From: Streptomyces fragilis
GTDB lineage: Bacteria > Actinomycetota > Actinomycetes > Streptomycetales > Streptomycetaceae
Length of the DNA: 64,000 nucleotides
Assembly: GCF_003112515.1 (NCBI RefSeq)
Contig: NZ_BEVZ01000002.1
Span: forward strand, 620,001 to 684,000
Reading direction: 5' to 3'
In this document: in pieces, positions 20,703 through 38,026 of the stretch
Layout of the letters: the number at the start of each line of letters is the position of its first letter
How positions within the stretch are numbered: the stretch's first letter is position 1
Translations under genes and position numbers: made by a program
The notes under the pieces: model-generated
Seen by the model: the letters and a program-made list of their open reading frames with translations, nothing else
What the model was told of the DNA's origin: nothing
Database searches by the model: none

Positions 20703-21431
20703 TCACAGGGCCGCGGCGGCGGCCGTCCGGGCGGCGGCCGGGCGGGTCGCGCAGGCGGTGACGAACCGGGCGAACAGGGAGTCGTCGCCGGACACCTCGG
20801 GATGCCACTGGACGCCCACGACGAACCGCCGCGAGGGGTCCTCGACGGCCTCGGCCAGACCGTCCTCGCTGCGACCGGTGACCCGCAGGGCGCCGGGGTC
20901 GTCGATCCCCTGGTGGTGGTGCGAGTTGACGCGCGCGCGAGGACCGTACACCTCGGCCACCACGCTGCCGGCGGCGAAGGACACCGGATGCTCGCCGAAC
21001 ACCCCCTCGGCGGGGCAGTGCCCGGTGTGCCCGAGCACGTCGGGCAGGTGCTGGTGCAGGCTGCCGCCGTACTCCAGGGCCAGCAGCTGCAGCCCGCGGC
21101 AGACGCCGAGGACGGGCAGGCCCCGTTCCAGGGCGCCGCGCAGCAGGAGCATCTCGGCGGCGTCCCGCAGGGGCTGGGCGCGGTCCGTCTCCGGGTGGCG
21201 GGCCTGGCCGAGGAGCACCGGGTCGATGTCCACGCCGCCGGGCAGCAGCAGCCCGTCGACCCGGTCCAGCACGTCGGCGTCCAGGTCGTCCGGCGGCAGG
21301 ACGACCGCGCGGCCCCCGTTCGCGGTGACGCCCCGCACGTAACTCTCGTGGATGACCGCGGCCCGCGCGTCCCAGATGTTCCAGCGCGCCTGCTCCAGGT
21401 AGGAGGCGATCGCGACGACGGGGCGGCTCAC
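20703..21431 (-). CDS. Class I glutamine amidotransferase-like (gamma-glutamyl hydrolase/PuuD type)
   Basis: This 242-aa peptidase-C26 type enzyme has a complete triad: Cys in VLGVCRGLQLL near residue 113 and His/Glu in VGVQWHPEVS near 210. Relatives remove gamma-glutamyl groups (PuuD) or supply ammonia. GTG 21431 overlaps the stop of the PLP enzyme gene upstream (GTGA), so the two are coupled. In this operon it could remove a gamma-glutamyl mask from a pathway amino acid or release ammonia from glutamine. It is the last gene of the leftward operon. Confidence 0.85.
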   Translation of the reverse strand: MSRPVVAIASYLEQARWNIWDARAAVIHESYVRGVTANGGRAVVLPPDDLDADVLDRVDGLLLPGGVDIDPVLLGQARHPETDRAQPLRDAAEMLLLRGALERGLPVLGVCRGLQLLALEYGGSLHQHLPDVLGHTGHCPAEGVFGEHPVSFAAGSVVAEVYGPRARVNSHHHQGIDDPGALRVTGRSEDGLAEAVEDPSRRFVVGVQWHPEVSGDDSLFARFVTACATRPAAARTAAAAAL

Positions 21432-22768
21432 GAGGCCACGGCCTGGGCGTGACGCGAGGTGGCGGGCGTCGTGCGCAGGGCGTCCGCGCACAGGGCGAGC
21501 GCCGTCTCCAGCAGGGGAGAGGTGCTGTCGACGGTCGCGCCGAAGCGGCTGCGCAGGCGCAGCGCGGCGACCCGGTCGGCGAGCTCCCGCGACGGCTCGG
21601 TGTCGTGGACGGCCGCGGCGAAGACGTCGGCGAGCTCGACCAGGTCGTCGCCGGCCAGCCCCTGATAGGTGGGCTCGTTCAGGCCGATGCGCACACCCTG
21701 CCCCGCGAAGCCGGGGAGACCCGCCATGAAGTTGACCCGCAGGCCCGCGGCGAAGAGGCGGTCGCTGGCAATCTTCGGGGCGACGCCGTCCGCCTCGGTG
21801 TCCAGCCACAGCTGGTGCCCGGCCGAGTAGCCGCGGTCCTTCGCCGCCACCGTGATCCCGCGTTCGTCCAGGAGCCGCCCGAAACGCCGGGTGTGGGCGA
21901 CGATCGCCCGCGCGTACGCGGGCCCGCCGCAGTCGCGGAACTCCAGCAGCGCGATGCCCAGGCCGATCGTCGAGGCGAAGTGGTGGCTGCTGATCAGGTA
22001 GTCCTGCGTCTCCCGCACCCGCTGGTCGATCGCGGCGTCACGGGTCAGCACCACGGCCTTCTGCGGGCCGGGGAAGGTCTTGTGGGTCGAGCCGCTGAGA
22101 CTGTCCGCGCCCTCGTCCAGCGGGTTGCGGAAGGCGCCGCCGAGCACGAGCCCGAACCAGTGACTGGCGTCGACGTGCACCAGGGTGCCGGGGGACGACG
22201 CGCGGACGGTGGCCACCAGGGACGCCACGTCCACCGGGAAGAGACAGTGCGACTGGTCGACGTAGACCAGCGTCGGACGGACCCGCGCCAGCAGGTCCGC
22301 CGCGTGCTCCAGGTCGAGTTCGTGGGGACCCGCCCCGCGCAGGAACTCCACCCGCAGGCCCAGCCGGCGCGCGAGGCTCGCGGTGGCGAAGTGGCCGCCG
22401 TTCTCCGGGGCGATGGTCACGACGGTCGAGCCGGGGCCGCCGCCCAGCGCGGCGAGCACCAGCGCCATCGCGTTGAGCCCGCTCAGCGGCCGGACCGAGA
22501 CGTGCTCGGCGCGCCCCAGCTCCCGCAGCAGCGGCACGGTGAGGTTCATCTCCAGGTCGCGCAGGCGCTGCCCGCCGCGGAAGTGCCAGCGGTCCGGGTG
22601 GTCCGACTCGTTGAAGAAGTACCGGTGGTACGGGTCGAGCAGCAGCGGGAGCTTGGAGATCCCCGACATGGCGTTCTCGGACGGCACCATGCTCAGGCCG
22701 CGGCGGGCCTCGCTCTCGTTCTCCGCGAGGAGCCGTACGACATCGTCCAGCGTCACGGGGGTGTTCAT
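21428..22768 (-). CDS. SHMT-fold PLP enzyme, threonine transaldolase/aldolase-like
   Basis: This fold-type I PLP enzyme (446 aa) is related to serine hydroxymethyltransferase but clearly diverged from housekeeping GlyA. The PLP-lysine motif near residue 230 reads GSTHKTFPGPQ instead of TTTTHKTLRGPR, the Asp-x-Ser-His segment is VHVDASHWFG, and the folate-side EGYPG motif is absent. This pattern recalls the L-threonine transaldolase branch (fluorothreonine, obafluorin and GlyU pathways), which makes beta-hydroxy amino acids from threonine or glycine and an aldehyde. The aldehyde partner is unknown. It follows hypF by 26 nt, with AGGAG upstream of ATG 22768. Confidence 0.78.
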   Translation of the reverse strand: MNTPVTLDDVVRLLAENESEARRGLSMVPSENAMSGISKLPLLLDPYHRYFFNESDHPDRWHFRGGQRLRDLEMNLTVPLLRELGRAEHVSVRPLSGLNAMALVLAALGGGPGSTVVTIAPENGGHFATASLARRLGLRVEFLRGAGPHELDLEHAADLLARVRPTLVYVDQSHCLFPVDVASLVATVRASSPGTLVHVDASHWFGLVLGGAFRNPLDEGADSLSGSTHKTFPGPQKAVVLTRDAAIDQRVRETQDYLISSHHFASTIGLGIALLEFRDCGGPAYARAIVAHTRRFGRLLDERGITVAAKDRGYSAGHQLWLDTEADGVAPKIASDRLFAAGLRVNFMAGLPGFAGQGVRIGLNEPTYQGLAGDDLVELADVFAAAVHDTEPSRELADRVAALRLRSRFGATVDSTSPLLETALALCADALRTTPATSRHAQAVAS

Positions 22769-22794: not shown

Positions 22795-25209
22795 TCACGC
22801 GGATCCACGGGCCGTGGCGCGCATCCGGGCGCCGGCCACCATCACCTGGCCGAGGGCGATGCCGCCGTCGTTGGTGGGCACCAGCCGGTGCGACCGGGCG
22901 TCGAAGCCCGCACGACGGAGTTCCACGAGGCAGTTGACGAGCAGGAACTCGTTGAGGAAGACGCCCCCGGAGAGGGCGACCTGGGTCACGCCGTGCCGGG
23001 CGCGCAGGTCCTCGCAGCGCTCGACGACCATGGCCACCACCGCGGAGTGGAAGCGGCGGCTGACCGTCGCCGTGTCGACGCCCAGGGCCAGGTCGGCGGC
23101 GATCTCCCGGATCACGGGATCCGGGTCGACGACCGTGGGCAGGCCCTCGCCGGCGGGCTCCTCGGCGCCGAAGCGGTACGGGCGGTCGGCGGGCGTCATG
23201 TCCCGCCCCAGCAGGCCCTCCAGCTCGATCGGCCCCTGGGCCTCGTACTCGGCGTGGGAACAGACGCCCAGCAGCGCCGCGACGCCGTCGAAGAGGCGGC
23301 CCATGCTGGAGACCGGCGGGGCGTTGAGGCCGCGCCGCACCATGGTGGTGTACACGTGGCGCTCCTGGTCGCCGAGGGCGCGCAGCGCGGGGAAGGACTC
23401 CTGGGCGGCCTCGGGGGAGCCGAGCGCGGTCAGGGCGAGCGCGAAGCCGGTGCGGACGGGCTGGTGCACCGCCATGTCGCCGCCGATCAGCGGGATCGGG
23501 CGCAGGTGCGCGACCCGCTCGGTCTCCTCGAAGCCGCCGAGCAGGAACTCGCCGCCCCAGATGGTGCCGTCCAGGCCGTAGCCCGCGCCGTCGAAGACCA
23601 CGCCGAGCGTGGTCCCGGTCATCCGGTTCTCCGCCATGCACGACGCCATGTGCGCGTGGTGGTGCTGGACCTCGACGACGGCCCCCGGGCGCTCGTCCCC
23701 CGCCAGGACGTGGGAGCGGAACGAGGGGTGCATGTCGACGGCGACGTGCCGGGGATCGAGTTCGTACAGCTCCGACAGGTGCGCGGCGGTCTGCTTGTGG
23801 GAGGCGAAGGTCTCGTCGTTCTTCAGGTCGCCGATGTGCTGGCTGACGTAGACCTTCGAGCCGGTGCCGAGGGCCACCGTGGTCTTGAGCTCGGCCCCGT
23901 AGGCGAGGACCGGCTCGGGCACCTCGTCGACCTCGACGGGGTACGGGGCGTAGCCACGCGAGCGGCGCACGAAGGTGACCAGCGGCTCCGCCAGCCGCGG
24001 ATGCTCCGAGCAGCGCACCACGGAGTCGTCGACGCGGACGTGGATGTCCCGGTCGTGGTGCAGGACGAGGTCCGCGACCTCGAACAGCTGGCCGAGTGCG
24101 TCCTCGTTGCGGTGGGCGATGGGATAGCCGGACACGTTGCCGCTGGTCATCACCAGGACGTCGAGGCCGGGACGGTCCAGCAGCAGGTGGTGCAGCGGAG
24201 CCGAGGGGAGCATGATGCCGAGGCTCGGATTGCGCGGGGCGATCTCCTCGGGAAGCGGGCAGTCCCGCCTCCTGCGCAGCAGCACGATCGGGCGTGCCGG
24301 GGACTCCAGCAGCTCCGCCTCGGCCGCGCCGCACTCGGCGACCGCGGCCGCGCCGGCCAGGTCGGCCACCATCAGCGCGAAGGGCTTGGAGTCACGCTTC
24401 TTGCGGGCACGCAGCCGGGCGACGGCCGCCGCGTTCCTGGCGTCGACCACCAGGTGGAAGCCGCCGACGCTCTTGACCGCGACGATCCGCCCGGCCGCCA
24501 GCGCCTCCGTCGTCCCGCCCAGCGCGTCCTCGCCGCCGGCGAGGGCCCCCGAGGGGCCGGACAGGGTCAGTCGCGGGCCGCACACCGGACAGGCGTTGGG
24601 CTGCGCGTGGTACCTGCGGTCGCCCGGGTCCTCGTACTCGCCGCGGCAGTCGCCGCACATGGTGAAGGACGCCATGGTCGTCTGCTCGCGGTCGTAGGGC
24701 AGGTCCTTGACGATGGAGTAACGAGGCCCGCAGTGCGTGCAGTTGGTGAAGGGATAGCGGTAGCGGCGGTCCGCGGGGTCGCGCACCTCCCGCAGGCAGT
24801 CGTCGCAGACGTGCGAGTCGGGCGCCACGATGGTGTCGGAGCGGCCGGTCCTGGCGCTCTGCCGGATCTCGAAACCCTCCGGCAGGCGGGCCGGGGCGGA
24901 GGCGCGGGCCTCCACCCGCACCTCCACGACCCGTGAGAGCAGCGGCGCGTCGTCGTGCAGCGCCGTGGTGAAGGCCGACAGCTGGGGGAGCGGGCCGTTG
25001 ACCTCGGTGAGCACCCCCTGGGTGTCGTTCAGCACCCAGCCGGTCAGCCCCAGGGACTTCGCCAGGGTGTAGACGAAGGGACGGTAACCCACCCCCTGCA
25101 CCACACCGCACACCCGGACGAGCCACTGTTCGGCGGGCGGGGCTTCGGCGGGCGGGGCGGGAGCCGGCCCGTCCGCGGGGCCGTCACTCGTGATGGTGAT
25201 CCGCTGCAC
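22795..25209 (-). CDS. hypF: HypF-type carbamoyltransferase
   Basis: This is a full-length (804 aa) HypF, which activates carbamoyl phosphate and transfers the carbamoyl group to the C-terminal Cys of HypE. Domains in order are acylphosphatase (about 28-115, VCGVVQGVGYRPF), two zinc fingers (CDDC/CTHCG and CGDC/CPVCG, about 130-215), a YrdC domain (about 230-410, LRARKKRDSKPFALMV) and a Kae1-like metal/ATP domain (about 430-790, VQHHHAHMASCM). Simple O-carbamoyltransferases such as TobZ lack the first two parts. No hypA, B, C, D or hydrogenase gene is in the window. It sits between hypE and a PLP enzyme in the NRPS operon. Confidence 0.93.
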   Translation of the reverse strand: MQRITITSDGPADGPAPAPPAEAPPAEQWLVRVCGVVQGVGYRPFVYTLAKSLGLTGWVLNDTQGVLTEVNGPLPQLSAFTTALHDDAPLLSRVVEVRVEARASAPARLPEGFEIRQSARTGRSDTIVAPDSHVCDDCLREVRDPADRRYRYPFTNCTHCGPRYSIVKDLPYDREQTTMASFTMCGDCRGEYEDPGDRRYHAQPNACPVCGPRLTLSGPSGALAGGEDALGGTTEALAAGRIVAVKSVGGFHLVVDARNAAAVARLRARKKRDSKPFALMVADLAGAAAVAECGAAEAELLESPARPIVLLRRRRDCPLPEEIAPRNPSLGIMLPSAPLHHLLLDRPGLDVLVMTSGNVSGYPIAHRNEDALGQLFEVADLVLHHDRDIHVRVDDSVVRCSEHPRLAEPLVTFVRRSRGYAPYPVEVDEVPEPVLAYGAELKTTVALGTGSKVYVSQHIGDLKNDETFASHKQTAAHLSELYELDPRHVAVDMHPSFRSHVLAGDERPGAVVEVQHHHAHMASCMAENRMTGTTLGVVFDGAGYGLDGTIWGGEFLLGGFEETERVAHLRPIPLIGGDMAVHQPVRTGFALALTALGSPEAAQESFPALRALGDQERHVYTTMVRRGLNAPPVSSMGRLFDGVAALLGVCSHAEYEAQGPIELEGLLGRDMTPADRPYRFGAEEPAGEGLPTVVDPDPVIREIAADLALGVDTATVSRRFHSAVVAMVVERCEDLRARHGVTQVALSGGVFLNEFLLVNCLVELRRAGFDARSHRLVPTNDGGIALGQVMVAGARMRATARGSA

Positions 25210-25221
25210 GATGCGCTCCGA

Positions 25222-26253
25222 TCAGCAGAGACGCGGAAGTTCCGCGCCCTGCAGCTCTTCGATCTCGCTGACCTTGCCGTCCTTGCCGACCATCTCGACC
25301 GCCTTCGCGGGCCGGTCGGTGACCTCGCCGATCACCACGGCCTTTCGGCCGTACGGATGGGCGTGCAGGGTCTTCAGGACGGCGTCCACCGCGCCCGGCT
25401 CGACGAAGAGGGCGAGACAGCCCTCGTTCGCCGCGTTGATCGGGTTGATGCCGAGCATGTCCGAGGCCATGCGCGTCTCGAAGTCGATGGGCAGGGCCTC
25501 CTCCTCCACGCGCACCGCACGGCCGAGGGCGGCGGAGTACTCGTGCAGGACCGCGGAGAGCCCGCCGCGCGTGACGTCGCGCATGGAGTGCACGGCGTCG
25601 TCGGGCACCGCCTTGTCGACGGACTCGATCAGGCCGTTGAGCGGCGCGCAGTCGCTGAGCACGTTCTTCTCGAAGCCCAGGCCCTCGCGCACGGACAGGA
25701 GATGGACGGTGTGGTTGCCGATCGGCCCGCTCAGGACGATCTTGTCACCGGGGCGGACGTCGGTCATCCGCTTCGGCGGGCGGTGGAAGACGCCGATGCC
25801 GGTGGTGTTGAGGAAGATGCCGTCCGCCTCACCGGGGCCGACGACCTTCGTGTCGCCGGCCACGATCTTCACCCCTGCCTCGAGCGCGGTCTCCCGCAGC
25901 GAGACGAGCGCCCGGTGGAGCAGGCGGATCGGGAAGCCGGTCTCCAGGATCATCGCGAGCGTGAGGTACCGCGGTTCGGCGCCGACCACGGCGAGGTCGT
26001 TGACCGTGCCGCAGACGGCGATCTTGCCGATGTCGCCGTTGCCGAAGAAGGGCGGGTCGACGACGAAGGAGTCGGTGGTCATCGCGATGTTGCCGGCCGG
26101 AACCGGCAGCATCGCGCTGTCCTCCATCTCGCCGACATAGACGTCGCCCAGCACGCCCACCATGAACTCGACGAGTTCCCGGCTCAGCCGGGCGCCGGTG
26201 CCGTGGTCAAGGACGATCTGCTGGTCCAGAAAAGATTCCGTGGCCGTCTGCAA
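25222..26253 (-). CDS. hypE: HypE-type thiocarbamate dehydratase
   Basis: HypE (343 aa) accepts a carbamoyl group on its terminal Cys and dehydrates it with ATP to an enzyme-thiocyanate, the source of cyanide for NiFe centres. The AIRS-like nucleotide fold is intact (GNGDIGKIAVCGTVNDLAVV, KIVAGDTKVVG, DVTRGGLSAVLHE), and the protein ends ELPRLC, matching the essential PRxC terminus. The start appears to be TTG 26253 with GGGAGC upstream. It is followed 12 nt later by hypF. Canonical residues suggest it can still make the thiocyanate; the acceptor here is unknown because HypC/HypD are missing. Confidence 0.93.
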   Translation of the reverse strand: MQTATESFLDQQIVLDHGTGARLSRELVEFMVGVLGDVYVGEMEDSAMLPVPAGNIAMTTDSFVVDPPFFGNGDIGKIAVCGTVNDLAVVGAEPRYLTLAMILETGFPIRLLHRALVSLRETALEAGVKIVAGDTKVVGPGEADGIFLNTTGIGVFHRPPKRMTDVRPGDKIVLSGPIGNHTVHLLSVREGLGFEKNVLSDCAPLNGLIESVDKAVPDDAVHSMRDVTRGGLSAVLHEYSAALGRAVRVEEEALPIDFETRMASDMLGINPINAANEGCLALFVEPGAVDAVLKTLHAHPYGRKAVVIGEVTDRPAKAVEMVGKDGKVSEIEELQGAELPRLC

Positions 26254-26333: not shown

Positions 26334-26921
26334 TCAGGGGGTGCGGAACACCTTGCGGGGCAGCTCGCCCGTCTCGTCGATCAGCCGGATGATCTCCGAG
26401 GACGGCTGGACCGTGGCGCAGTAGCCGTCCAGCCAGTCGAGGGCGCGGATCTTGTCGTGGTCGCGGGCGGAGACGACGCAGTCGCTCGGGACCCAGACGT
26501 TGTAGCCGCGGAAGAACGCGTCGGCGGCGGTGGTCTGGACGCAGATCTGGCCCTGCATGCCGGTCACGATGACCGTCTCGACGCCGAGGTCCTGCAGGCG
26601 CTCGTGCAGGTCGGTCTCGTAGAAGCCGCTGTCCTTGTTCTTCTCCACGAGGATGTCGGAGTCCTCCAGGAAGACCGGGAGGATCTCGGCGCCCTTCGTG
26701 CCCTTCTGCGCCGGGAGCCGGCCGCCCTCGTAGCGCTCGGCCACCGGGTCGTCCTCACGGTTGATCAGCTGCAGGTGGAAGACGTGGTGGCCGCGCTCGC
26801 GGATGTCCTTGAGGAAGCCGGAAAAGCTCGGGGTGGCCTCCGCCACCGCGTCGATCCGCTCCTGGTTCTTGTTGACGAGGTCGTACTGCAGGTCGTTGGT
26901 CAGTACCGCGATCTTGCTCAT
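26334..26921 (-). CDS. Isochorismatase-fold cysteine hydrolase
   Basis: This 195-aa member of the isochorismatase superfamily has the full Asp-Lys-Cys triad: Asp in LTNDLQYDLV near residue 10, Lys in LVEKNKDSGF near 90 and Cys in TGMQGQICVQTTAADAF near 128. Family members hydrolyse amides, carbamoyl groups or vinyl ethers (nicotinamidase, N-carbamoylsarcosine amidase, isochorismatase). It opens the isochorismatase-hypE-hypF-PLP-GATase unit, behind a copy of the cluster dyad. A carbamoyl- or amide-cleaving role tied to HypEF chemistry is attractive but unproven. Confidence 0.85.
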   Translation of the reverse strand: MSKIAVLTNDLQYDLVNKNQERIDAVAEATPSFSGFLKDIRERGHHVFHLQLINREDDPVAERYEGGRLPAQKGTKGAEILPVFLEDSDILVEKNKDSGFYETDLHERLQDLGVETVIVTGMQGQICVQTTAADAFFRGYNVWVPSDCVVSARDHDKIRALDWLDGYCATVQPSSEIIRLIDETGELPRKVFRTP

Positions 26922-27061: not shown

Positions 27062-28528
27062 TCAGCCGAGGACGCGGTGCCCGCCGTGCCGCGTCATCTC
27101 GTCCAGCACCGCGTGGTAGTCCTCGACGAACCGCAGGACGCGCCCGGGGGAGAACACGTCGGTGCTGTAGATCGCGAGGCTGCGCGCACCGTCCCCGTCG
27201 TGCCGCAGCCGCAGGCTCAGCGGCCGCGCGACGTACGGCATCGGGGGCATCACCCGCTCGACGGCCAGCTCGCCCAGCCGGTCCGCCACGGCGATGTCGT
27301 TCTCCGCGGTGAACTGCACGTGGAAGAGCCGGTCCAGCAGGCCGGGCTCGTCGAGGTGGGGCTCCAGCAGGTGCGCCGGCACGTCGTGGTGCATGAGGTC
27401 GCGGTTGCTCTCCTCGGCGACCGTGGCGACCAGCTCGGTGAACGTGGGGTTGCCGGACAGGTCGGTCCTGACGACCACGTCGTTGGAGAAGTCCGCGACG
27501 AGGTCCTGGACCTCGGTGCTGTCACGGTAGGAGACGGGCGCGCGCACGCAGATGTCCCGCTGTCCCGAGGCACGGGCCAGCGTCACCTGGAAGGCGGCGA
27601 GACCGAGGGTGTAGACGGTGGTGCGGGCCCGCCGCGCCATCGCCGTGAGCCCCCGGAACACCTCCTGCGGGACCGGCACGTCCAGCAGCGCGCCGTAGGG
27701 CGTCGGCTCGGCCGGCGCCGGCAGGTCCGTGGGCAGTTCGGCCGGCCGGGCGCCGCGCAGCCGCCGCGACCAGTAGGCCGTGACCTCGGCGGCGCGCGGA
27801 CCCTCGACCAGGGCGCGATGCGCCGCGGCGAAGTCCCCGTGGCGCAGGGGAGGCGGGGGCAGTTCCGGCCGCACGCCCGCCGCGCGTGCGAGGTAACAGG
27901 CGCCGAGGTCGCGGACCAGGACCTCCAGCGCGCGCCCGTCGGCGATGATGTGGTGCAGCATCAGGAATGCGATGTGCTCGTCCGGCGCGGTCCGCAGCAG
28001 CCGCAGGCGGGCCGGCGGCCCGGCCGACAGGTCGAAGGAGAGATCGACCTCCTCGCGGGTGAACTGCTCCAGTCCGCCCGGCGGAAGGTCGAGGACGGGC
28101 ACGGACACCCGCAGCGACGAGGCGACGACCTGCGTGAGCTGCCCGTCCTCCAGGCGCAGGGAGCTGCGCAAATTGTCGTGGCGGGCCACCACGTCGTTCC
28201 ACGCCTCCTCGAGCGCCGCGGTGTCCAGCCGGCCGGACAGCCGCAGGCCGCCGGCGATCAGGGGCGGGGTGGACCCGGGACCCCCGCGCAGGGACTGCCA
28301 CATGCCTTCCTGCGCCACCGAGGCACGGAAACGCGTCTCCGTGCTGGTGGCGCTGGTGTTGGTGCTGTCGCTGCCGGTGCGGTCGCCGCTGTCGGCGGCG
28401 CCGGGCGCGGGCCCGGCCGCCGGGGGGCGGCCGCCCCCCGGCGCGACGGCACGGCGCGTCCGCAGCAGCGCCTCCTCCACCCGCCGCCTGGTCTCGAAGT
28501 CCGTCTGGGACAGTCGTGTTCCGGTCAT
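27062..28528 (-). CDS. Stand-alone NRPS condensation domain protein
   Basis: This 488-aa protein has a charged, Pro/Gly-rich N-terminal tail of about 80 residues and a single condensation-type domain. Its catalytic motif HHIIADG near residue 194 is intact. There is no adenylation or carrier domain. Free-standing C domains can join an amine to a carrier-bound peptide, or release it. ATG 28528 is preceded by AGGAGG. Because no TE domain is fused to any NRPS in the window, this protein is a candidate for trans condensation or chain release. Confidence 0.9.
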   Translation of the reverse strand: MTGTRLSQTDFETRRRVEEALLRTRRAVAPGGGRPPAAGPAPGAADSGDRTGSDSTNTSATSTETRFRASVAQEGMWQSLRGGPGSTPPLIAGGLRLSGRLDTAALEEAWNDVVARHDNLRSSLRLEDGQLTQVVASSLRVSVPVLDLPPGGLEQFTREEVDLSFDLSAGPPARLRLLRTAPDEHIAFLMLHHIIADGRALEVLVRDLGACYLARAAGVRPELPPPPLRHGDFAAAHRALVEGPRAAEVTAYWSRRLRGARPAELPTDLPAPAEPTPYGALLDVPVPQEVFRGLTAMARRARTTVYTLGLAAFQVTLARASGQRDICVRAPVSYRDSTEVQDLVADFSNDVVVRTDLSGNPTFTELVATVAEESNRDLMHHDVPAHLLEPHLDEPGLLDRLFHVQFTAENDIAVADRLGELAVERVMPPMPYVARPLSLRLRHDGDGARSLAIYSTDVFSPGRVLRFVEDYHAVLDEMTRHGGHRVLG

Positions 28529-28581
28529 CGGTCGCCTCCTGGGGTCAGGACCAGACGACCAGCTCCCCGGCGGGGGCGGCA

Positions 28582-28599
28582 GTCGGGGCTTTCCCCGGC
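28582..28599 (-). promoter_or_regulatory. Cluster dyad copy upstream of the stand-alone C domain
   Basis: On the minus strand it reads GCCGGG-GAAAGC-CCCGAC followed by TGCC, one mismatch from the consensus. It ends 53 nt before the start at 28528, in the 108-nt gap after the 63-aa gene. Confidence 0.5.
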
Positions 28600-28636
28600 G
28601 GGCGACGCGCGTCACTGGGCCGTGCGGGCGTCCGGC

Positions 28637-29783: not shown

Positions 29784-31700
<1,917 letters not shown>

Positions 31701-31772: not shown

Positions 31773-32501
31773 TCAGCGGGCCGCACGGGCGGGGTGCGTC
31801 TCCTCGGCGATCAGCTGGAGGAGGGCGTCCGTCCGGTCGGTCAGGTACATGTGGCCGCCGTCGATCTCGGCGAGCCGGAAGCGGCCCGTCGTGACGGAGC
31901 GCCAGGTTCCGGCGTCCTTCGCGGACACCCTGTCGTCCTCGCTGCCCCGCACGGCGAGCACCGGCAGGGACAGGGGCCGGGAGGTGGGGAAGGCATGGCT
32001 CTCGTGCATCGCCACGTCGGTCCGCAGCGGCGGCAGCACCAGCGGGTGCAACGCGGGGTCGGCGAGGGCGGGGTGGCTGTAGCCGGAGATCTCCTGGACC
32101 CGGGCCGCGAACTCGTCGTCGGGCAGCCCGGTGACCCGGCGCTCCCGGGCGGCGGCCTGATCGGCCGATCCGGGCCCGCCGGAGCCGCTGACGACCAGGG
32201 TGAGATCGAGGCCGGGCCTTCTGCGGGCCATCGCCCGCACTGCGCGGTGGGCGACGACCGCCCCGAAGCAGTGGCCGAGCACCACGACCCGCTCCGAGGT
32301 GGCGGAGGCCTCCAGCATCTCGGGAACGAGCACCTCCAGCAGGCCGTCCAGGTCGGTGCGCTCGGGCTCGGTGAAGCGCTTCCCCCGGCCCGGGAACTCC
32401 ACCGGGACGACGAGCAGGCCGGGGTGACGGCCGACCCAGGGCCGGAAGAACGCGGCCCCGGCCCCGGCGGGCGGAAGACAGAACAGGGTGGTGCTCGGCA
32501 T
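31773..32501 (-). CDS. TE-like alpha/beta hydrolase with Cys nucleophile (possible trans aminoacyltransferase)
   Basis: This 242-aa protein has the type II thioesterase fold, but the nucleophile elbow reads VVVLGHCFGAVVA, so Cys78 replaces the usual Ser. The Asp (RGSEDDRV) and His (DGGHMYL) are kept. Cys-type relatives include SyrC and CmaE, which shuttle aminoacyl groups between carrier domains, and TE domains that form strained rings. It lies between an orphan A-T and a dead-A module, the SyrB1-SyrC-SyrE order. Editing hydrolysis remains possible. ATG 32501 has GAGGAG upstream. Confidence 0.85.
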   Translation of the reverse strand: MPSTTLFCLPPAGAGAAFFRPWVGRHPGLLVVPVEFPGRGKRFTEPERTDLDGLLEVLVPEMLEASATSERVVVLGHCFGAVVAHRAVRAMARRRPGLDLTLVVSGSGGPGSADQAAARERRVTGLPDDEFAARVQEISGYSHPALADPALHPLVLPPLRTDVAMHESHAFPTSRPLSLPVLAVRGSEDDRVSAKDAGTWRSVTTGRFRLAEIDGGHMYLTDRTDALLQLIAEETHPARAAR

Positions 32502-32521: not shown

Positions 32522-35500
32522 TCAGCGGGTCCCGGCCGGTTCCGTGCCGGCCACGGCACCCATCTGCACGTCCGCGCCGGCGGGTTCCTCGACCAGGCGC
32601 TGCAGCACCTTCCAGGCCACCTCGGCCACGGTGAAGTCCGCGTACAGGTCACGCATCGCCAGGTCGACGCCGAGGTCGTCGCGGATCCGGGAGGCGAGGC
32701 GCACGGCCGTCAGCGAATGACCGCCGAGATCGAAGAAGTTGTCACTCGCGCCGACGTCCTCCACCTCGAGGATCTCCTCCCACATCCGGGCGATCTCCGT
32801 CTCCAGCGGGGTGCGAGGGGCGATGTGCCCGGCGGCCCCGCCGGCCGGAGCCGCCTCCGGCAGCGGAAGGGCGGCCACGTCGAGGTCGCCCGCCGCGGTG
32901 CGGGGAAGGGCGTCCAGCGCGACGATCCCGGCCGGCACGCACGCCGCGGGCAGCTCCTCGGCCAGGGCGTCGAGCAGGGCCGGCGGGTCCAGCTGCTCAC
33001 CGGGCGCGGCGACCACGTAGGCCACCGGCCGGAAGCCGCCCGAGGCCACGGGCCGTGGGAGCACGGCGCAGGCGGCGACGCCCGGCAGCGCGCCCAGGAC
33101 GGTCTCCGCCTCCCGCGGATCGAGGCGCAGACCGTCGGCGAGCCACAGCCCGTCGGTGCGCCCCAGCAGCTCCAGCGTGCCGTCGGGCCGCCGGCGCGCC
33201 CGCTCACCCGTGCGCAGCAGCAGGGCGCCGGGCCGGGACGCGTGGGGGTCCGGGACGCGGCACGGGCCGGCCGGCCGGGAGCGGTCGGCGGGGGCGGGGC
33301 GGTCGCCGGAGCCGGAGCCGGGGCGGTCGTCGGAGCCGGGGCCGGGGCCGATCGGGGGACCGGCCACGCACAGCTCACCCGTCACGCCGAGGGGCACGGG
33401 CTCCAGATGCTCGTCCAGCACGTGGAGGTCGTGCCCCGGCAGCCGCCGCCACGACGTCGGGCCCGCGGCGGACCCGGCATCGCCCCACGCGACGGGGCCG
33501 GCCGTCTCGGGCAGGTCCAGCAGGCGCACCACCCGGGCCGGTCCGTCGCCGACGAGTTCGACGGCGCGCCGGACGGTCTCCGGGGCGTCGCCCACCACCA
33601 CCCGGGTGGCCGTGGCGGGCGGGACCGGAAGGTCCGCGGGCGCCGTCCCGGCCAGGGACAGCACGGACGCCGTGGCAAACTCCTCGCCGGGAGCGCCGGG
33701 GAGCAGCAGCGTCGCGCCGCGGAGCAGGACCGGGAACATCTGCCGCAGCACGTGCTCGGAGCGCCGGGACCCGCACCACCACCGGTCCGAGGGGACCAGG
33801 GACAGGTGGGCGGCGACGTCCCGGGCGGCGGTCAGCACGGCGCCGTGGCCCAGGTCCGCGAGCGTGACCGCGCCGTCCCGGGACGGCGCCCAGGACCACA
33901 GCGCGACCTCCCCGGCCCCGTGTCCGGCTTCCCCGGCGCCGTGCGCACCGTGCCCGGCCTCCTCGGCGCCGTGCGCACCGTGCCCGGCTTCCCCGGCGCC
34001 GTGCGCACCGTACCCGGCCGCGTCACCGGAGGCGTCCGCGGGCCGCGGGCCGTCCTCGGTCAGCACCACGGGCGCCCCGGAGCGGGCCACCACCCGCCGG
34101 ACCGTCTCGCCGGGCAGCGAGGGGTCCACGGCGAGCGGGGCGCCCCCGGCCTTCAGGACGGCCAGGGCCCCCACGACCAGGGCGCAGGAGGGCGCCATGA
34201 CCAAGGCCACCGGGGTCCCGGCCCGCACCCCGGACCGCTCCAGCACGCGCGCCAGCTCACCGGCCCGCCGGTCCAGTCCGGCGTGGTCCAGCACGCCGTC
34301 GCCCGCCACCACGGCCGGCGCGTCCGGCGTCCGGAGCGCCCACTCGGCGACCGCCTCGGACACCCGCCCCTCCACCGGGTCGGCCCCGGGTGCGTTCCAC
34401 GCGGTCAGCAGGGTGTCGCGCTCCTCCGCCGACAGCAGGGCCAGCTCCGAGACGGCGCGCTCGGGGCGGTCGGCGACGGCCTCGAGCACCGACACGAAGT
34501 GGGCGCCGATGCGCTCCGCGGTGCTCGCGTCGAACAGGTCGGCGCTGTACTGCAGGACCACGTGGTGGCCGGCGTCGCCCGGCCGCACGTCGAGGGCGAG
34601 ATCGGCCTTGGCCGTGCCGGTGTCGATGTGCGTCATCTCGAACTCCAGGCCGGCCGACTCCCACCGCAGGGGCGCCTTGGCCTGCAGGACCAGCATCACC
34701 TGCGCGCCCGGCGGCCGTGCCGAGGCGCCCTGCCGGCGGATCAGGTCCGTCGCCTGCTCGAAGGGCAGCTCCTGGTGCCGGTAGGCGCCGAGGCAGACGT
34801 CCCGCACCCGGTCGAGCAGTTCGGAGAACGCCGGATCGCCGGACATGTCGGTGCGCAGCATCAGCGGATTGACGAAGTAGCCGATGAGGCCCTCGAGTTC
34901 GGGGCGGGTGCGGCCGGACATGGGGGAGGTCACGGTGATGTCGTGCTGCCCGCTGTAGCGCGCGAGCAGCACGTCGAACGCCGCCAGCAGCACCATGAAC
35001 GGCGTCGCGTTCCGGCGGCGCGCCAACGCCTCCAGCCGGCGCACCAGCGGATCGGGGACCGTGAAGTGATGCGTGCCCCCACGGTCGGACAGGACGGCCG
35101 GGCGCGGCCGGTCGGTCGGCAGCTCGCAGGCCACCGCGCCCGCCAGCGCCCCGGACCAGTAGCCGGTGAGCTCCCGCAGCCTGTCCCCGCTCAGGTGCTC
35201 GCGTTGCCACACCGCGAAGTCCGCGTACTGGATGGGCAGTTCCGCGAACCGGGGTTCGGCTCCCGCCAGATGCGCCTGGTAGGCGGCCGTCAGCTCCTGG
35301 AAGAAGATGCCCGAGGAGGCGCCGTCGGTGACGATGTGGTGCATCACCAGCAGCGCCAGGTGGTCGCGCTCGCCCAGCCGCAGCAGCCGCAGCCGGACCA
35401 GCGGCCCCTCCCGCAGGTCGAACGGGGCCGCCAGCTCCTCCCGCGCGGTCTCCTCGAGGTCCTCGGGCGAGCAGTCGGTCACCGTCACCCGCAGCGGGGC

Positions 35501-35737
35501 CGTCGGCCCGATCACCTGGACGGGTTCGCCCTCGTCGAGGTCGAAGACGGTGCGGAGCACCTCGTGCCGCGCCACCACCGTGTTGAGGGCGCGCTCGAGC
35601 GCCCCGACGTCCAGCGGGCCCCGCAGCCGCACCGCGGCCGTCACGTTGTACGCCGCCTGACCCGGATCGATCCTGTTCTGCAACCAGAGGCTCTGCTGCG
35701 AGAACGAGGTGTCGACCACCAGGGTTTCCTCGGTCAT
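32522..35737 (-). CDS. NRPS C-A*-T with inactive adenylation domain
   Basis: This is a 1071-aa module. The C domain (about 10-430) is intact (VMHHIVTDGASS), and the carrier motif DLGGHSL lies near residue 1004. The A region (about 460-960) has lost its ATP-binding motifs. No TSGSTG-PKG loop or YGPTE is found, RTGD has become RTGE, and the A10 Lys region reads RTAAGDLD. An in-frame 10-residue repeat (AHGAGEAGHG type) sits where the nucleotide loop should be. The frame is open throughout, so this is selected inactivity or drift, not a frameshift. Its carrier must be loaded in trans. ATG 35737 follows GAGGAGG. Confidence 0.92.
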   Translation of the reverse strand: MTEETLVVDTSFSQQSLWLQNRIDPGQAAYNVTAAVRLRGPLDVGALERALNTVVARHEVLRTVFDLDEGEPVQVIGPTAPLRVTVTDCSPEDLEETAREELAAPFDLREGPLVRLRLLRLGERDHLALLVMHHIVTDGASSGIFFQELTAAYQAHLAGAEPRFAELPIQYADFAVWQREHLSGDRLRELTGYWSGALAGAVACELPTDRPRPAVLSDRGGTHHFTVPDPLVRRLEALARRRNATPFMVLLAAFDVLLARYSGQHDITVTSPMSGRTRPELEGLIGYFVNPLMLRTDMSGDPAFSELLDRVRDVCLGAYRHQELPFEQATDLIRRQGASARPPGAQVMLVLQAKAPLRWESAGLEFEMTHIDTGTAKADLALDVRPGDAGHHVVLQYSADLFDASTAERIGAHFVSVLEAVADRPERAVSELALLSAEERDTLLTAWNAPGADPVEGRVSEAVAEWALRTPDAPAVVAGDGVLDHAGLDRRAGELARVLERSGVRAGTPVALVMAPSCALVVGALAVLKAGGAPLAVDPSLPGETVRRVVARSGAPVVLTEDGPRPADASGDAAGYGAHGAGEAGHGAHGAEEAGHGAHGAGEAGHGAGEVALWSWAPSRDGAVTLADLGHGAVLTAARDVAAHLSLVPSDRWWCGSRRSEHVLRQMFPVLLRGATLLLPGAPGEEFATASVLSLAGTAPADLPVPPATATRVVVGDAPETVRRAVELVGDGPARVVRLLDLPETAGPVAWGDAGSAAGPTSWRRLPGHDLHVLDEHLEPVPLGVTGELCVAGPPIGPGPGSDDRPGSGSGDRPAPADRSRPAGPCRVPDPHASRPGALLLRTGERARRRPDGTLELLGRTDGLWLADGLRLDPREAETVLGALPGVAACAVLPRPVASGGFRPVAYVVAAPGEQLDPPALLDALAEELPAACVPAGIVALDALPRTAAGDLDVAALPLPEAAPAGGAAGHIAPRTPLETEIARMWEEILEVEDVGASDNFFDLGGHSLTAVRLASRIRDDLGVDLAMRDLYADFTVAEVAWKVLQRLVEEPAGADVQMGAVAGTEPAGTR
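33921..34010 (-). repeat. Three tandem 30-nt units inside the dead A domain
   Basis: Units at 33921-33950, 33951-33980 and 33981-34010 differ at only a few bases. Each encodes ten residues of the type AHGAGEAGHG. A fourth partial unit follows. Being in frame, they expand a low-complexity His/Gly/Ala/Glu loop in the C-A*-T protein. Confidence 0.9.
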
Positions 35738-35848
35738 CGTTGTGGATCCTCCTCGCTCGCGCCGGCCGCACCGGGCCGGTGCCCGTCCCGGCGTCCCAAT
35801 GGCTCGTGCCTGTGACGGATGCTCCGCCAGGACGCCCCGCGCCCAGTA

Positions 35849-35866
35849 GTCGGGCAACTCCCCGAC
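35849..35866 (-). promoter_or_regulatory. Cluster dyad upstream of the leftward NRPS operon
   Basis: On the minus strand it reads GTCGGG-GAGTTG-CCCGAC followed by TACTGG, a perfect 6-6-6 dyad. It lies 111 nt before the C-A*-T start at 35737. Confidence 0.65.
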
Positions 35867-35897
35867 GCGGCTCCCGACGGCGCCGTCGCCGGGCGGC

Positions 35898-35915
35898 GTG
35901 GGGCATTCCCCCGAC
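35898..35915 (+). promoter_or_regulatory. Cluster dyad upstream of the 2OG oxygenase operon
   Basis: It reads GTGGGG-CATTCC-CCCGAC followed by TGA, one mismatch from consensus, 69 nt before the GTG at 35985. With the site at 35849 it fills the divergent promoter region 35738-35984. Confidence 0.55.
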
Positions 35916-35984
35916 TGATGCGCGGCGCGGCCCGTTGCCACGCTGGAGGCCCTTGCCCGTGCCACGCAGAAAGGGGGCACCGAC

Positions 35985-36734
35985 GTGTCCGAGCCGAACA
36001 CCGCAACGCCCACCGGCACCATCCACCCGGCGACGTCCGCCGCGGTGCGGGAGCTGTCCGCCTGGGGCGGGTACCTGCAGCCGGCGGCCGAGCAGAGCGA
36101 CCTCATCGGGGCGACACCGCAGGACTGGGCGCGCTTCGCCCGGCACTGGGACGACCTGACCGTCGACACCTACATGCGCGACGGCGGCGTCTACCGCTAC
36201 CGCCGCTACGGCCACTTCAGGCTCGACGCGGCCACCGGGGAGCTCACCGCCCTGCCGCACGGACCGTACCGGCAGGAGAGCAGCGTCAACCCGCTCAACG
36301 GCGGCATCGAGCGCCACTTCGACCCGCTGACGGACGCCTTCCTCGCGGACCCGCTGACCCGGTCCGTCGTGCTGTCCCTCGGGGAGATCTTCTCCGGTGT
36401 GGAGGGGACCACCGACTGGGACGTCAAGCTGCACCCGTTCCGCATCGTCACCAGCTCCGCCGAGACCGGCCGGCCCGCCCCGCAGGGCCGCCACCGCGAC
36501 GGATCGACGTTCGTCACCTCGCTGCTCGTCGGCCGGACCAACGTGACGGGCGGTGAGAGCTCCCTGTACACGCCCGAGGGCGAACAGCTGCTCGCCGCCA
36601 CCCTGACCGCGCCGGGCGACCAGCTGCTGGTCGACGACCGCGTCGTGCTGCACGACGTCACCCCGGTCACCCCGGTCGACCCCTCGGCCCCCGCCCACCG
36701 TGACGTCCTGATCGTCGACTTCGACCGGCTGTGA
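35985..36734 (+). CDS. 2OG-Fe(II) dioxygenase (amino acid hydroxylase type)
   Basis: This 249-aa protein resembles the 2OG-Fe dioxygenase family that includes the L-isoleucine 4-hydroxylase IDO. The iron-binding HxD is GRHRDGSTF near residue 168, with the distal His in VLHDVTPV near 224. Members usually hydroxylate free aliphatic amino acids or their sulfur analogues. It is therefore a candidate for supplying a hydroxylated building block to the NRPS. The GTG start has an AAAGGGGG site upstream; the stop overlaps the MFS gene. Confidence 0.8.
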   Translation: MSEPNTATPTGTIHPATSAAVRELSAWGGYLQPAAEQSDLIGATPQDWARFARHWDDLTVDTYMRDGGVYRYRRYGHFRLDAATGELTALPHGPYRQESSVNPLNGGIERHFDPLTDAFLADPLTRSVVLSLGEIFSGVEGTTDWDVKLHPFRIVTSSAETGRPAPQGRHRDGSTFVTSLLVGRTNVTGGESSLYTPEGEQLLAATLTAPGDQLLVDDRVVLHDVTPVTPVDPSAPAHRDVLIVDFDRL

Positions 36735-38026
36735 AACCCTCGACGGCCGACAACCGCCGCTTCGGCCCGGGCTTCTGGCGGCTCTGGACGGCGACCACCG
36801 TCTCCGGGCTGGGCGACGGCATCCGCATCTTCGCCCTGTCGGTGTACGCGGCCACCCTGACCAGCGACCCGGTCCACGTCTCGCTGGTGGCCGTGGCGGG
36901 CCAGCTCCCGTGGGTCCTCGTCGGACCCTTCAGCGGGACGCTCGTCGACATGGTCGACCGCTGGCGGATGCTGTGGATCTGCGACGCGGCCCGCTCCGCC
37001 GTGCTCGGCTGCTTCGTCCTGGCGATCCTCACCGGCCGGGCCGACATCGCCGTGGTCGTCGTCACCGCCTTCCTGCTGAGCGCCGTCGAGACGATGGCCG
37101 ACAACCTGTCCCAGGCCGTCGTGCCGGACGTCGCCGGCTCGCGCAGCCTCGACTCCGCCAACAGCAAGCTGCTGACCGGGCGGCTGGTCACCATGGAGTT
37201 CCTCGGCGCGCCCGTCGGGACCGCGCTGTTCGTGGTCGCGCACCTGCTTCCCTTCGGCCTGGCGACCTTCTGCTTCGCCGCGTCCACGGTCCTGATCCTC
37301 GGCGCCCGGCCCGGCGGCGCGACGGTCCCGCGGGCCCGCGTCACCCTGCGCGGCGTCGGCTCGCGGACCGCGGAAGGCGTCGCCTGGCTGTGGCGCCACC
37401 GCGTGCTGCGCTCGGTGTGCGCCATGGTCGCCCTGCTCAACGCCGCGGTGCTGGCCGTCCTCGCCGTCGCGGTGCTCTACGCCCTGCACGTCCTGCACGT
37501 CAGCGAGACCGTCTACGGACTGCTGCTCCTGGTCATCGCCGTGGGCGGCCTGCTCGGACTGCTGGTCTCCGAGCGCCTCGTCGTGAAGCTCGGCCGGGGC
37601 CGGACCCTCCAGCTGGCCCTCGCCCTGTGCCCGCCGGCCTTCGTCGTCGGCGGGCTCGCCTCCCACCCCCTGGCCGCCGCGGTCGCCCTGGCCCTCGTCG
37701 GCACCGGTGTCGCGCTGGTCAACGTCGTCACGACCACGCTGCGGCAGGTGCTCGTGCCGCCGGAGCGGTTCGGACAGGTGAGCGGCGCCTACCGGCTCGT
37801 CGTCAACGGCCTCTCCCCGCTGGGCGGCCTCGGCGGCGGACTGCTCGCCGACCGGCTGGGTCTGCGCGCCCCCTTCTTCGCGGCCGCCGTGCTGCTCGCC
37901 GTGTGTGCCGTCGCCTCGCTGACCCTCCTGTCCGACCGGGCCCTCGACGCGTCGCCGCAGGAGGCCGACGAACCCGGACCCCACGGCCCCTCGGGCCTCC
38001 CCGCAGCAGAAACGGCCTCCCCGTGA
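36731..38026 (+). CDS. MFS transporter (product efflux/self-resistance)
   Basis: This 431-aa integral membrane protein has about 12 hydrophobic segments, typical of the drug-exporting MFS_3 type (start KPSTADNRRFGPGFWRLWTATT). It overlaps the oxygenase stop by 4 nt (GTGA) and the peptidase start by 4 nt, so it is tightly coupled in the operon. Export of the lipopeptide is the likely role. Confidence 0.85.
   Translation: MKPSTADNRRFGPGFWRLWTATTVSGLGDGIRIFALSVYAATLTSDPVHVSLVAVAGQLPWVLVGPFSGTLVDMVDRWRMLWICDAARSAVLGCFVLAILTGRADIAVVVVTAFLLSAVETMADNLSQAVVPDVAGSRSLDSANSKLLTGRLVTMEFLGAPVGTALFVVAHLLPFGLATFCFAASTVLILGARPGGATVPRARVTLRGVGSRTAEGVAWLWRHRVLRSVCAMVALLNAAVLAVLAVAVLYALHVLHVSETVYGLLLLVIAVGGLLGLLVSERLVVKLGRGRTLQLALALCPPAFVVGGLASHPLAAAVALALVGTGVALVNVVTTTLRQVLVPPERFGQVSGAYRLVVNGLSPLGGLGGGLLADRLGLRAPFFAAAVLLAVCAVASLTLLSDRALDASPQEADEPGPHGPSGLPAAETASP

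What the first reader, a model, noticed from the sequence alone, without database searches (positions are those of the whole stretch)
22795..26253. Complete HypE and HypF inside an NRPS operon, without hydrogenase genes
HypF keeps all four domains and HypE keeps its terminal PRLC cysteine, so the pair should still build a thiocarbamate and dehydrate it to an enzyme-bound thiocyanate. HypC/HypD, which pass cyanide to iron, are absent from the window. The genes sit between an isochorismatase-fold hydrolase and a PLP enzyme in an NRPS operon, behind the cluster dyad. I infer recruitment of hydrogenase maturation chemistry to make a nitrile, cyanamide, thiocyanate or carbamoyl group on a peptide or amino acid. 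I know of no described natural-product pathway using this pair.
Basis: partly seen in the sequence, partly recalled or inferred. Interest (0 to 1): 0.93.

Follow-up and report, generated by a model that had tools for sequence, protein, structure and literature searches.

The report
Hydrogenase cyanide module in peptide cluster
A bacterium in which no nickel-iron hydrogenase was found keeps an intact pair of the enzymes known for making cyanide ligands for such hydrogenases, inside a nonribosomal-peptide gene cluster and next to a small hydrolase; the same three genes recur side by side in varied gene neighbourhoods of at least five bacterial phyla, so the trio likely puts a cyano- or carbamoyl-derived group on a small molecule instead of on iron.

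Summary
Confirmed and widened. HypF (22795-25209) and HypE (25222-26253) are intact, catalytically complete and the only copies over cut-off in a 100%-complete assembly where no HypC, HypD or [NiFe] subunit was found. They form a three-gene unit with the adjacent isochorismatase-fold cysteine hydrolase ("ISOCH", 26334-26921). A scan with ISOCH alone returned 72 loci; 66 carry HypE and HypF too, in five phyla and varied settings (NRPS, ATP-grasp, diaminobutyrate-type transaminase, ureohydrolase, HAD phosphatase); HypD lies in none of the stretches read. Triad HypEs end PRLC, hydrogenase-type ones PRIC, and the latter form one side of a branch (100/100). In eight Streptomyces genomes with both, a second hypE stands with hypD and hypF; a Paraburkholderia plasmid carries both sets back to back. 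The window's five-gene version (with threonine transaldolase and C26) recurs in 10 of 78 loci, all with an NRPS. Recruitment is well supported. The product is not shown: my best reading is cyanation of an amine (cyanamide or cyclic guanidine); C-cyanation and plain carbamoylation are rivals. A 2020 paper already remarked on hypE/hypF in one candidate RiPP cluster, without function; I saw the ISOCH triad and its spread nowhere in the library searched.

The parts
26334..26921 (-). ISOCH: isochorismatase-fold cysteine hydrolase, third member of the conserved triad; Asp10-Lys94-Cys127 kept
   Evidence: PF00857 106 bits; D10, K94, C127 invariant in 46 sequences (their catalytic role is from family knowledge); AlphaFold2 model pLDDT 93.8; fold ties with triuret/biuret hydrolases, maleamate amidase, N-carbamoylsarcosine amidase, RutB and nicotinamidases
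25222..26253 (-). HypE (TTG start as listed; true start may lie a little downstream), terminal PRLC with Cys343
   Evidence: TIGR02124 410 bits; matches 48 of 48 columns conserved in both triad and hydrogenase-type HypEs; among triad rows in the tree
22795..25209 (-). HypF carbamoyltransferase, all domains
   Evidence: TIGR00143 730 bits and five Pfam families; matches 110 of 111 columns conserved in triad and hydrogenase HypF
21428..22768 (-). SHMT-fold PLP enzyme of the L-threonine transaldolase type (TTA)
   Evidence: best NCBIfam hit fluorothreonine transaldolase 208 bits, below its cut-off 650; PDB relatives include 7k34 'Threonine aldolase'; in 11 of 78 loci
20703..21446 (-). Peptidase C26 / gamma-glutamyl hydrolase-like class I GATase
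   Evidence: PF07722 199 bits; with TTA in 10 of 78 loci
27062..28615 (-). stand-alone NRPS condensation domain protein
   Evidence: PF00668; 64% in the sibling cluster L034
28825..29721 (-). biopterin-dependent aromatic amino acid hydroxylase (PAH-like); found only in the window among the loci tested
   Evidence: PF00351 208 bits; NF008877 253.5 over cut-off 247; no tblastn match in 98 other loci
29784..31700 (-). NRPS A-PCP
31773..32501 (-). type II thioesterase-like protein
   Evidence: PF00975
32522..36169 (-). NRPS C-A-PCP (real start probably below 36000, since the ORF overlaps the divergent 2OG gene)
   Evidence: my caller places the start at 35737
35985..36734 (+). 2OG-Fe dioxygenase, divergent gene of the same cluster
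   Evidence: PF10014 223 bits; 67-85% in sibling clusters
36731..38026 (+). MFS exporter
   Evidence: 67% in the sibling cluster L145
41284..60485 (+). second NRPS arm with SHMT (50476-51852), thioesterase, methyltransferase-bearing module and A-PCP
   Evidence: NRPS3 72% and SHMT 85% also follow the triad operon in genus-mate G087 (L145)

Best explanation
An intact HypE-HypF pair, in a conserved three-gene unit with an isochorismatase-fold cysteine hydrolase, is predicted to convert carbamoyl phosphate into a HypE-bound thiocyanate and likely hands that cyano group to an amine of an amino-acid building block of the peptide, not to hydrogenase iron. Steps: (1) HypF cleaves and adenylates carbamoyl phosphate and carbamoylates Cys343 of HypE (inferred from residue conservation; chemistry established for hydrogenase HypF). 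(2) HypE uses ATP to dehydrate it to the thiocyanate (inferred likewise). (3) With HypC/HypD absent, the ISOCH protein, whose Cys127 could accept or activate the cyano carbon, takes their place as the acceptor side and directs the group to an N-nucleophile, giving a cyanamide that may close to a cyclic guanidine or isourea on a neighbouring amine or hydroxyl (hypothesis). (4) In the window the threonine transaldolase and the C26 hydrolase likely make or deprotect the amino acid concerned, which the NRPS then activates (hypothesis). Shown by calls: the genes, their completeness, their uniqueness in the assembly, the triad and its spread. Not shown: any product. The confidence given is for a cyano group ending on a small molecule by this route; N- rather than C-cyanation is the weaker half.
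For: Triad: 66 of 72 loci found with ISOCH alone hold all three genes, median gaps 82.5 and 42 bp; 19 of 20 fetched genus regions hold all three as whole ORFs. HypD in 0 of 78 loci, 0 of 20 genus regions and not in the window, while the same queries find it in 16 of 16 hydrogenase-type loci; no HypD in 10 of 23 triad genomes (one of these 55% complete). Of the 13 with HypD I read 9 loci: 8 have HypD, HypE and HypF together, one HypE beside a partial HypD. Chemistry kept: window HypE matches 48 of 48 shared columns, incl. D134, K136, D226, R229, C343; 16 of these are kept in at most 2 of 6 degenerate paralogues. Carbamoyl-phosphate supply: carA-carB directly behind HypF in L115 (CarB 1320 bits). 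N-C-N chemistry nearby: arginase-family protein in 7 of 78 loci, diaminobutyrate-type transaminase in 21 of 78 (three scanned, all over an NCBIfam cut-off). Co-inheritance: distance correlations 0.85-0.96 in 47 rows.
Against: No product, no activity and no model of a complex. ISOCH could simply be a hydrolase acting later or clearing N-carbamoyl by-products; an isochorismatase-fold protein acting as a cyano acceptor has no precedent known to me, and its fold ties with nicotinamidases as well as urea-type hydrolases, so fold does not name the substrate. The diaminobutyrate and ureohydrolase partners were not seen in the window, so the N-acceptor argument is borrowed from other loci. Two of the seven arginase-family loci lack HypE or both Hyp genes (L118, L123). 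The transaminase count rests on a tblastn bit threshold that other class III aminotransferases could pass. ISOCH persists without HypE/HypF in two loci (L122, L123). Two triad loci (L075, L159, both Paraburkholderia) do lie beside hydrogenase genes. Distance correlation partly reflects common descent of the hosts. The tree does not show the triad HypEs to be one clade: its root is unknown and 12 of 64 triad rows fall nearer the hydrogenase-type rows.
Confidence: 0.5

Rival explanations
1. C-cyanation: the HypE thiocyanate is attacked by a carbanion (enamine, phenol or PLP quinonoid) and yields a true nitrile on an amino acid, with ISOCH acting on a related amide.
For: Same conserved HypE/HypF residues; the window has a transaldolase-type PLP enzyme, a class that forms a glycyl carbanion (recalled), and an aromatic hydroxylase.
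Against: Neither enzyme is general: transaldolase is in 11 of 78 loci and the aromatic hydroxylase in none of 78 loci or 20 genus regions. I saw no nitrile-specific enzyme recur among the families scanned.
Confidence: 0.2
2. Carbamoylation only: HypE serves as a carbamoyl carrier and the product carries a urea or carbamate; ISOCH trims or exchanges N-carbamoyl groups.
For: ISOCH's fold ties with biuret, triuret, ureidoacrylate (RutB), maleamate and N-carbamoylsarcosine hydrolases and nicotinamidases, which act on carbamoyl or amide groups.
Against: Dedicated carbamoyltransferases already do this in antibiotic pathways (PMC6022934, passages); there would be little reason to keep HypE's shared columns, yet the window keeps 48 of 48 and they erode in the degenerate group.
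Confidence: 0.17
3. The pair makes an Fe-CN cofactor for some other metalloenzyme.
For: Known end use of this chemistry; some loci have proteins with weak, below-cut-off matches to haem-oxygenase-like iron enzyme families (relatives of these in 14 of 78 loci).
Against: HypD, the iron scaffold, is in 0 of 78 loci and not in the window's genome, nor is HypC; I saw no iron enzyme common to all contexts.
Confidence: 0.05
4. Ordinary hydrogenase maturation genes that drifted into a BGC, or act in trans for a hydrogenase.
For: hypE/hypF names given by annotation; two Paraburkholderia triads lie beside hydrogenase genes.
Against: No hydrogenase found in this genome; PRLC/PRIC split and tree; the P. 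phymatum plasmid's hup-hyp operon has its own hypE, hypD, hypC and hypF beside the triad.
Confidence: 0.02

Closest known systems
HypE-HypF of [NiFe]-hydrogenase maturation (TIGR02124, TIGR00143)
   Same: Both proteins over the family cut-offs; window keeps 48 of 48 HypE and 110 of 111 HypF shared columns; C-terminal Cys carrier.
   Different: No HypC/HypD or hydrogenase found; PRLC instead of PRIC; apart from hydrogenase-type rows in the tree; paired with ISOCH.
hypE/hypF in a candidate RiPP cluster with an ATP-grasp ligase (decRiPPter paper, PMC7794033; passages read)
   Same: Same recognition that the pair left the hyp operon and probably has a new function; perhaps one of the ATP-grasp triad loci seen here (not checked).
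   Different: The passages name one cluster, no ISOCH link and no mechanism.
Natural-product O-carbamoyltransferases (TobZ, GdmN type)
   Same: YrdC-like plus Kae1-like catalytic core using carbamoyl phosphate (PMC9633730, PMC6022934, passages).
   Different: Those act on hydroxyls; here the acceptor is a second enzyme's cysteine followed, by inference, by dehydration.
Isochorismatase-fold cysteine hydrolases (triuret/biuret hydrolase, maleamate amidase, N-carbamoylsarcosine amidase, RutB, nicotinamidase)
   Different: About 18-28% identity; own subfamily genetically tied to HypE-HypF.
L-threonine transaldolases (fluorothreonine transaldolase, ObiH)
   Same: Best NCBIfam hit and a PDB relative, 7k34 (that 7k34 is ObiH is recalled).
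   Different: Below the fluorothreonine model's cut-off; substrate unknown.

Membership tests
HypF (TIGR00143) | score over curated cut-off with acylphosphatase, two zinc fingers, YrdC and Kae1-like domains | tested here: met
   730 bits vs 466; domains; 110 of 111 shared columns
HypE (TIGR02124) | score over cut-off and C-terminal PR(I/V/L)C cysteine | tested here: met
   410 bits vs 252, ends PRLC
[NiFe]-hydrogenase maturation system | HypC and HypD, which move CN to iron, in the genome | tested here: not met
   HypD 0 and HypC 0 in the 100%-complete assembly, E. coli control positive
[NiFe]-hydrogenase maturation system | a [NiFe]-hydrogenase to mature | tested here: not met
   no large subunit over cut-off, no small-subunit C-terminal domain
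[NiFe]-hydrogenase maturation system | HypE placed with hydrogenase-type HypEs | tested here: not met
   31 hydrogenase-type rows form one side of a branch at 100/100; window lies in an 8-row group of transaldolase-linked triad rows (99/95)
ISOCH-HypE-HypF triad (described here) | ISOCH, HypE, HypF adjacent, no HypD beside them | tested here: met
   window gaps 80 and 12 bp; 66 of 72 loci; no HypD in the window
Isochorismatase-fold cysteine hydrolases (PF00857) | fold and catalytic Asp-Lys-Cys | tested here: met
L-threonine transaldolase | transaldolase activity, or score over a curated model | tested here: inconclusive
   208 bits against a cut-off of 650 for fluorothreonine transaldolase
small-molecule cyanation pathway | CN group transferred from HypE to a metabolite | not testable with these tools
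   needs protein or product chemistry

The most novel reading that the evidence does not exclude
ISOCH-HypE-HypF is a self-contained, mobile cyanation module: carbamoyl phosphate is turned into an electrophilic cyano group on HypE, relayed through the isochorismatase-fold cysteine enzyme, which replaces HypC/HypD, and placed on amines of diamino or hydroxy-amino acids to make cyanamides and cyclic guanidines. It would be the first known enzymatic electrophilic cyanation of small molecules, used in nonribosomal peptides, ATP-grasp peptides and minimal operons across several phyla.
Probability: 0.3. Interest if true: 0.95.

Novelty: new variant of a known kind. Interest (0 to 1): 0.8.

Why it matters
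Cyanide-ligand synthesis by HypE/HypF is established (to my knowledge) only as a step in hydrogenase assembly. A conserved unit of the two cyano-forming enzymes with a hydrolase, found in varied loci of five phyla and lacking the iron-side partner HypD, implies a second use of this chemistry that can be tested directly with purified proteins. If right it gives biocatalysis a carbamoyl-phosphate-driven cyano donor and gives genome miners a specific handle (ISOCH next to a PRLC-type HypE) for unknown products. It also means that hypE/hypF annotation alone, given to these genes in the records read, does not indicate a hydrogenase.

Tried and rejected
Hydrogenase maturation in trans: rejected by own-genome searches. 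The single weak [NiFe] large-subunit hit was opened and reads as NuoD-type. Pseudogene or passenger: rejected by intact frames and dN/dS 0.15-0.32 for five genes. NRPS substrate prediction: adenylation codes were only partly extractable by motif (the A-PCP code matched none I could name, the A-PCP2 code looks valine-like from recall), so not used. Escherichia sp. triad DNA (L111) has no megablast match in 20,395 E. coli records. Mesorhizobium hypE paper (PMC10454058, passages): nothing there points to the triad. HypC absence in related loci is weak: my HypC query missed an annotated HypC in L159; only HypD is relied on there, with a positive control (16 of 16). L159's stretch does not reach that plasmid's HypD, so its '0' says only that HypD is not inside the stretch. 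Gene calling was my own and fails on some loci (L072, L073, L075, L078, L094, L103, L120), so presence was counted by tblastn. Pfam was run on L040, L046, L051 and L052 as representatives of the non-NRPS genus contexts; the others were grouped by gene order, length and, where named copies exist, blastp families. Rows dropped: 101 of 106 collected HypE rows in the tree, five left out as short or frame-broken (L114, L173, L174, L193, L196). Of the 31 hydrogenase-type rows, 17 have Hyp or hydrogenase neighbours read; 14 come from a phylum search (18 of 30 loci translated cleanly, 14 used) and are assigned only because no ISOCH lay within 1.5 kb. L053/L067 (55% complete genome) has broken frames. 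The six of 72 loci without the full triad: L071, L118, L124 show HypF but not HypE, L119 a HypE fragment only, L122 and L123 neither. The name S. fructofermentans for G087 rests on equal contig length (466919) with L065. Listings were capped. Literature: ten searches of the held library; preprints and most subscription papers were not searchable.
Full report
Observation. HypF (22795-25209, minus) and HypE (25222-26253, minus) are complete. HypF scores 730 bits against TIGR00143 (cut-off 466) with acylphosphatase, two HypF zinc fingers, YrdC-like and both Kae1-like domains; HypE scores 410 bits against TIGR02124 (cut-off 252) and ends PRLC. They sit in one minus-strand run: C-A-PCP (32522-36169), thioesterase, A-PCP, biopterin-dependent aromatic hydroxylase, stand-alone C domain, isochorismatase-fold hydrolase (26334-26921, here ISOCH), HypE, HypF, an SHMT-fold enzyme of the threonine-transaldolase type, and a C26 gamma-glutamyl-hydrolase-like protein. 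dN/dS against G087 is 0.15 (HypE), 0.28 (HypF) and 0.19 (ISOCH).

Genome test. The window's assembly is 6.85 Mb in 18 contigs, completeness 100. It holds no other HypF zinc finger gene, no other HypE over cut-off, no HypD, no HypC, no [NiFe] large subunit over cut-off (the one 22-bit hit reads as a NuoD-type protein) and no small-subunit C-terminal domain. The E. coli control rang each time.

The pair is part of a triad. Searching 392 genomes of the genus with HypE, 23 genomes carry a copy at 54% identity or more (one of them, 55% complete, only partly matched); the other copies in the capped list are at 41-52%. I fetched 20-kb regions for 20 of the other 22. In 19 of 20, ISOCH, HypE and HypF are whole ORFs close together (in four, ISOCH is divergent and one gene away); the twentieth has broken frames. 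The contexts differ: NRPS clusters with transaldolase and C26 (L034-L039), ATP-grasp clusters (L040, L042, L043), clusters with GNAT, diaminobutyrate-type transaminase, M20 peptidase, ATP-grasp and a protein with a weak haem-oxygenase-like match (L041, L044-L048), and clusters with a weak DUF3865 match and an arginase-family protein (L049-L052) (Pfam on representatives L040, L046, L051, L052).

To test the link without bias I scanned the named genome collection with the ISOCH alignment only. It returned 72 loci in Actinomycetota, Pseudomonadota, Myxococcota, Bacillota, Chloroflexota, Bacteroidota and unplaced MAGs. All three genes are present in 66 of 72, in the first five of these phyla, with median gaps of 82.5 bp (ISOCH-HypE) and 42 bp (HypE-HypF); of the other six, three show HypF only, one a HypE fragment only, two neither. 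HypD is in 0 of 78 loci (the 72 plus six plasmid regions), 0 of the 20 genus regions and not in the window; the same queries find it in 16 of 16 hydrogenase-type loci. [NiFe] large-subunit genes lie in 2 of the 78, both Paraburkholderia (L075, L159). An NRPS is in 16 of 78 and in all 11 transaldolase loci; the five-gene set ISOCH-HypE-HypF-transaldolase-C26 is in 10 of 78. Pairwise distances of the three proteins correlate at 0.85, 0.88 and 0.96 over 47 rows, maximum 0.31 in 500 permutations, which partly reflects shared descent.

Separation from hydrogenase HypE. In a tree of 101 HypEs, 31 hydrogenase-type sequences form one side of a branch with 100/100 support and length 0.9. The root is unknown and 12 of 64 triad rows lie nearer that branch, so I do not claim that the triad rows are one clade. 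Of 65 triad rows collected, 64 end PRLC and the remaining one is frame-broken; 31 of 31 hydrogenase-type rows end PRIC. Within the genus, 13 of 23 triad genomes also have HypD. I read nine of those loci: in eight HypD stands with its own HypE and HypF at 41-46% identity to the window's, in one HypE is beside a partial HypD; four were not opened. On the Paraburkholderia phymatum plasmid pBPHY02 a hup-hyp operon with its own hypE, hypD, hypC and hypF lies next to ectB, GNAT and the triad.

Chemistry kept. Forty-eight HypE columns are conserved in both triad and hydrogenase-type proteins, including D134, K136, D226, R229 and the terminal cysteine; the window matches all 48. Six degenerate HypE-like proteins, nested among triad rows, keep 16 of these columns in at most two of six, the cysteine in none. 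For HypF 111 columns are shared between 60 triad and 10 hydrogenase sequences; the window matches 110. So the triad is under selection for carbamoylation and, by inference, for the dehydration to thiocyanate described for hydrogenase HypE (PMC4506123, passages read). A complete carbamoyl-phosphate synthase (carA, carB) directly follows HypF in locus L115.

What the acceptor may be. Class III aminotransferases of the diaminobutyrate-transaminase type are in 21 of 78 loci, in three phyla; the three I scanned pass an NCBIfam cut-off (518 vs 401.6, 606 vs 552, 410 vs 401.6). One ATP-grasp branch has a decarboxylase whose best model is diaminobutyrate decarboxylase, far below cut-off. Arginase-family proteins, whose known members act on guanidines, are in 7 of 78, two of them loci without a full triad. 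A 1,3-diamine plus an electrophilic cyano group would give a cyclic guanidine. In the window the transaldolase plus a gamma-glutamyl hydrolase could supply a hydroxylated diamino acid. This is a chain of inference; nitrile formation or plain carbamoylation are not excluded.

Prior print. In the held library ten searches showed no pathway in their listings. One paper (PMC7794033, passages read) notes hypE and hypF beside an ATP-grasp ligase in one candidate RiPP cluster, with no other hyp genes, and suggests a novel function. The ISOCH triad, its cross-phylum spread, the PRLC signature and the NRPS branch were not seen described.

Verdict. Observation confirmed; recruitment strongly supported; product unknown. 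I rate it a new variant of a known chemistry with high interest because the key step can be tested with two or three proteins.

Noticed in passing
L126, L127, L129-L132 (genus-mates): Degenerate HypE-like proteins without the terminal cysteine and with many catalytic columns lost, nested among triad HypEs in the tree and lying in other gene neighbourhoods; a possible pseudoenzyme or new PurM-fold activity.
   Followed up: partly
L159 (Paraburkholderia phymatum pBPHY02): Plasmid with a hup-hyp operon and, back to back, ectB-GNAT-unknown-ISOCH-HypE-HypF; L075 (P. diazotrophica) likewise has a [NiFe] large subunit near its triad.
   Followed up: partly
L111, L113, L114, L120, L121, L161, L164: Small version, mostly in Enterobacterales, two on plasmids: LysR-type gene, ISOCH, HypE, HypF and HAD phosphatase, with an MFS gene in L111, L114, L121, L161 and L164 and no NRPS found.
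   Followed up: partly
L122 (Gilliamella), L119 (Raoultella): LysR and ISOCH retained with HypE/HypF absent or only a HypE fragment left, HAD retained in Gilliamella; looks like decay of the module.
   Followed up: no
L162 (Streptomyces clavuligerus plasmid pF1D35B): This species carries a triad locus with DUF3865, arginase-family and ATP-grasp genes and no product named in the annotation read.
   Followed up: no
L105, L123: B12-binding radical SAM-type protein (Pfam run on L105; L123 by blastp family) beside ISOCH and an arginase-family gene; L105 also has an NRPS and HypE-HypF.
   Followed up: no
window 51902-52690 and 40759-41484: Two ORFs in the cluster region with no Pfam match at E 1e-3.
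   Followed up: no
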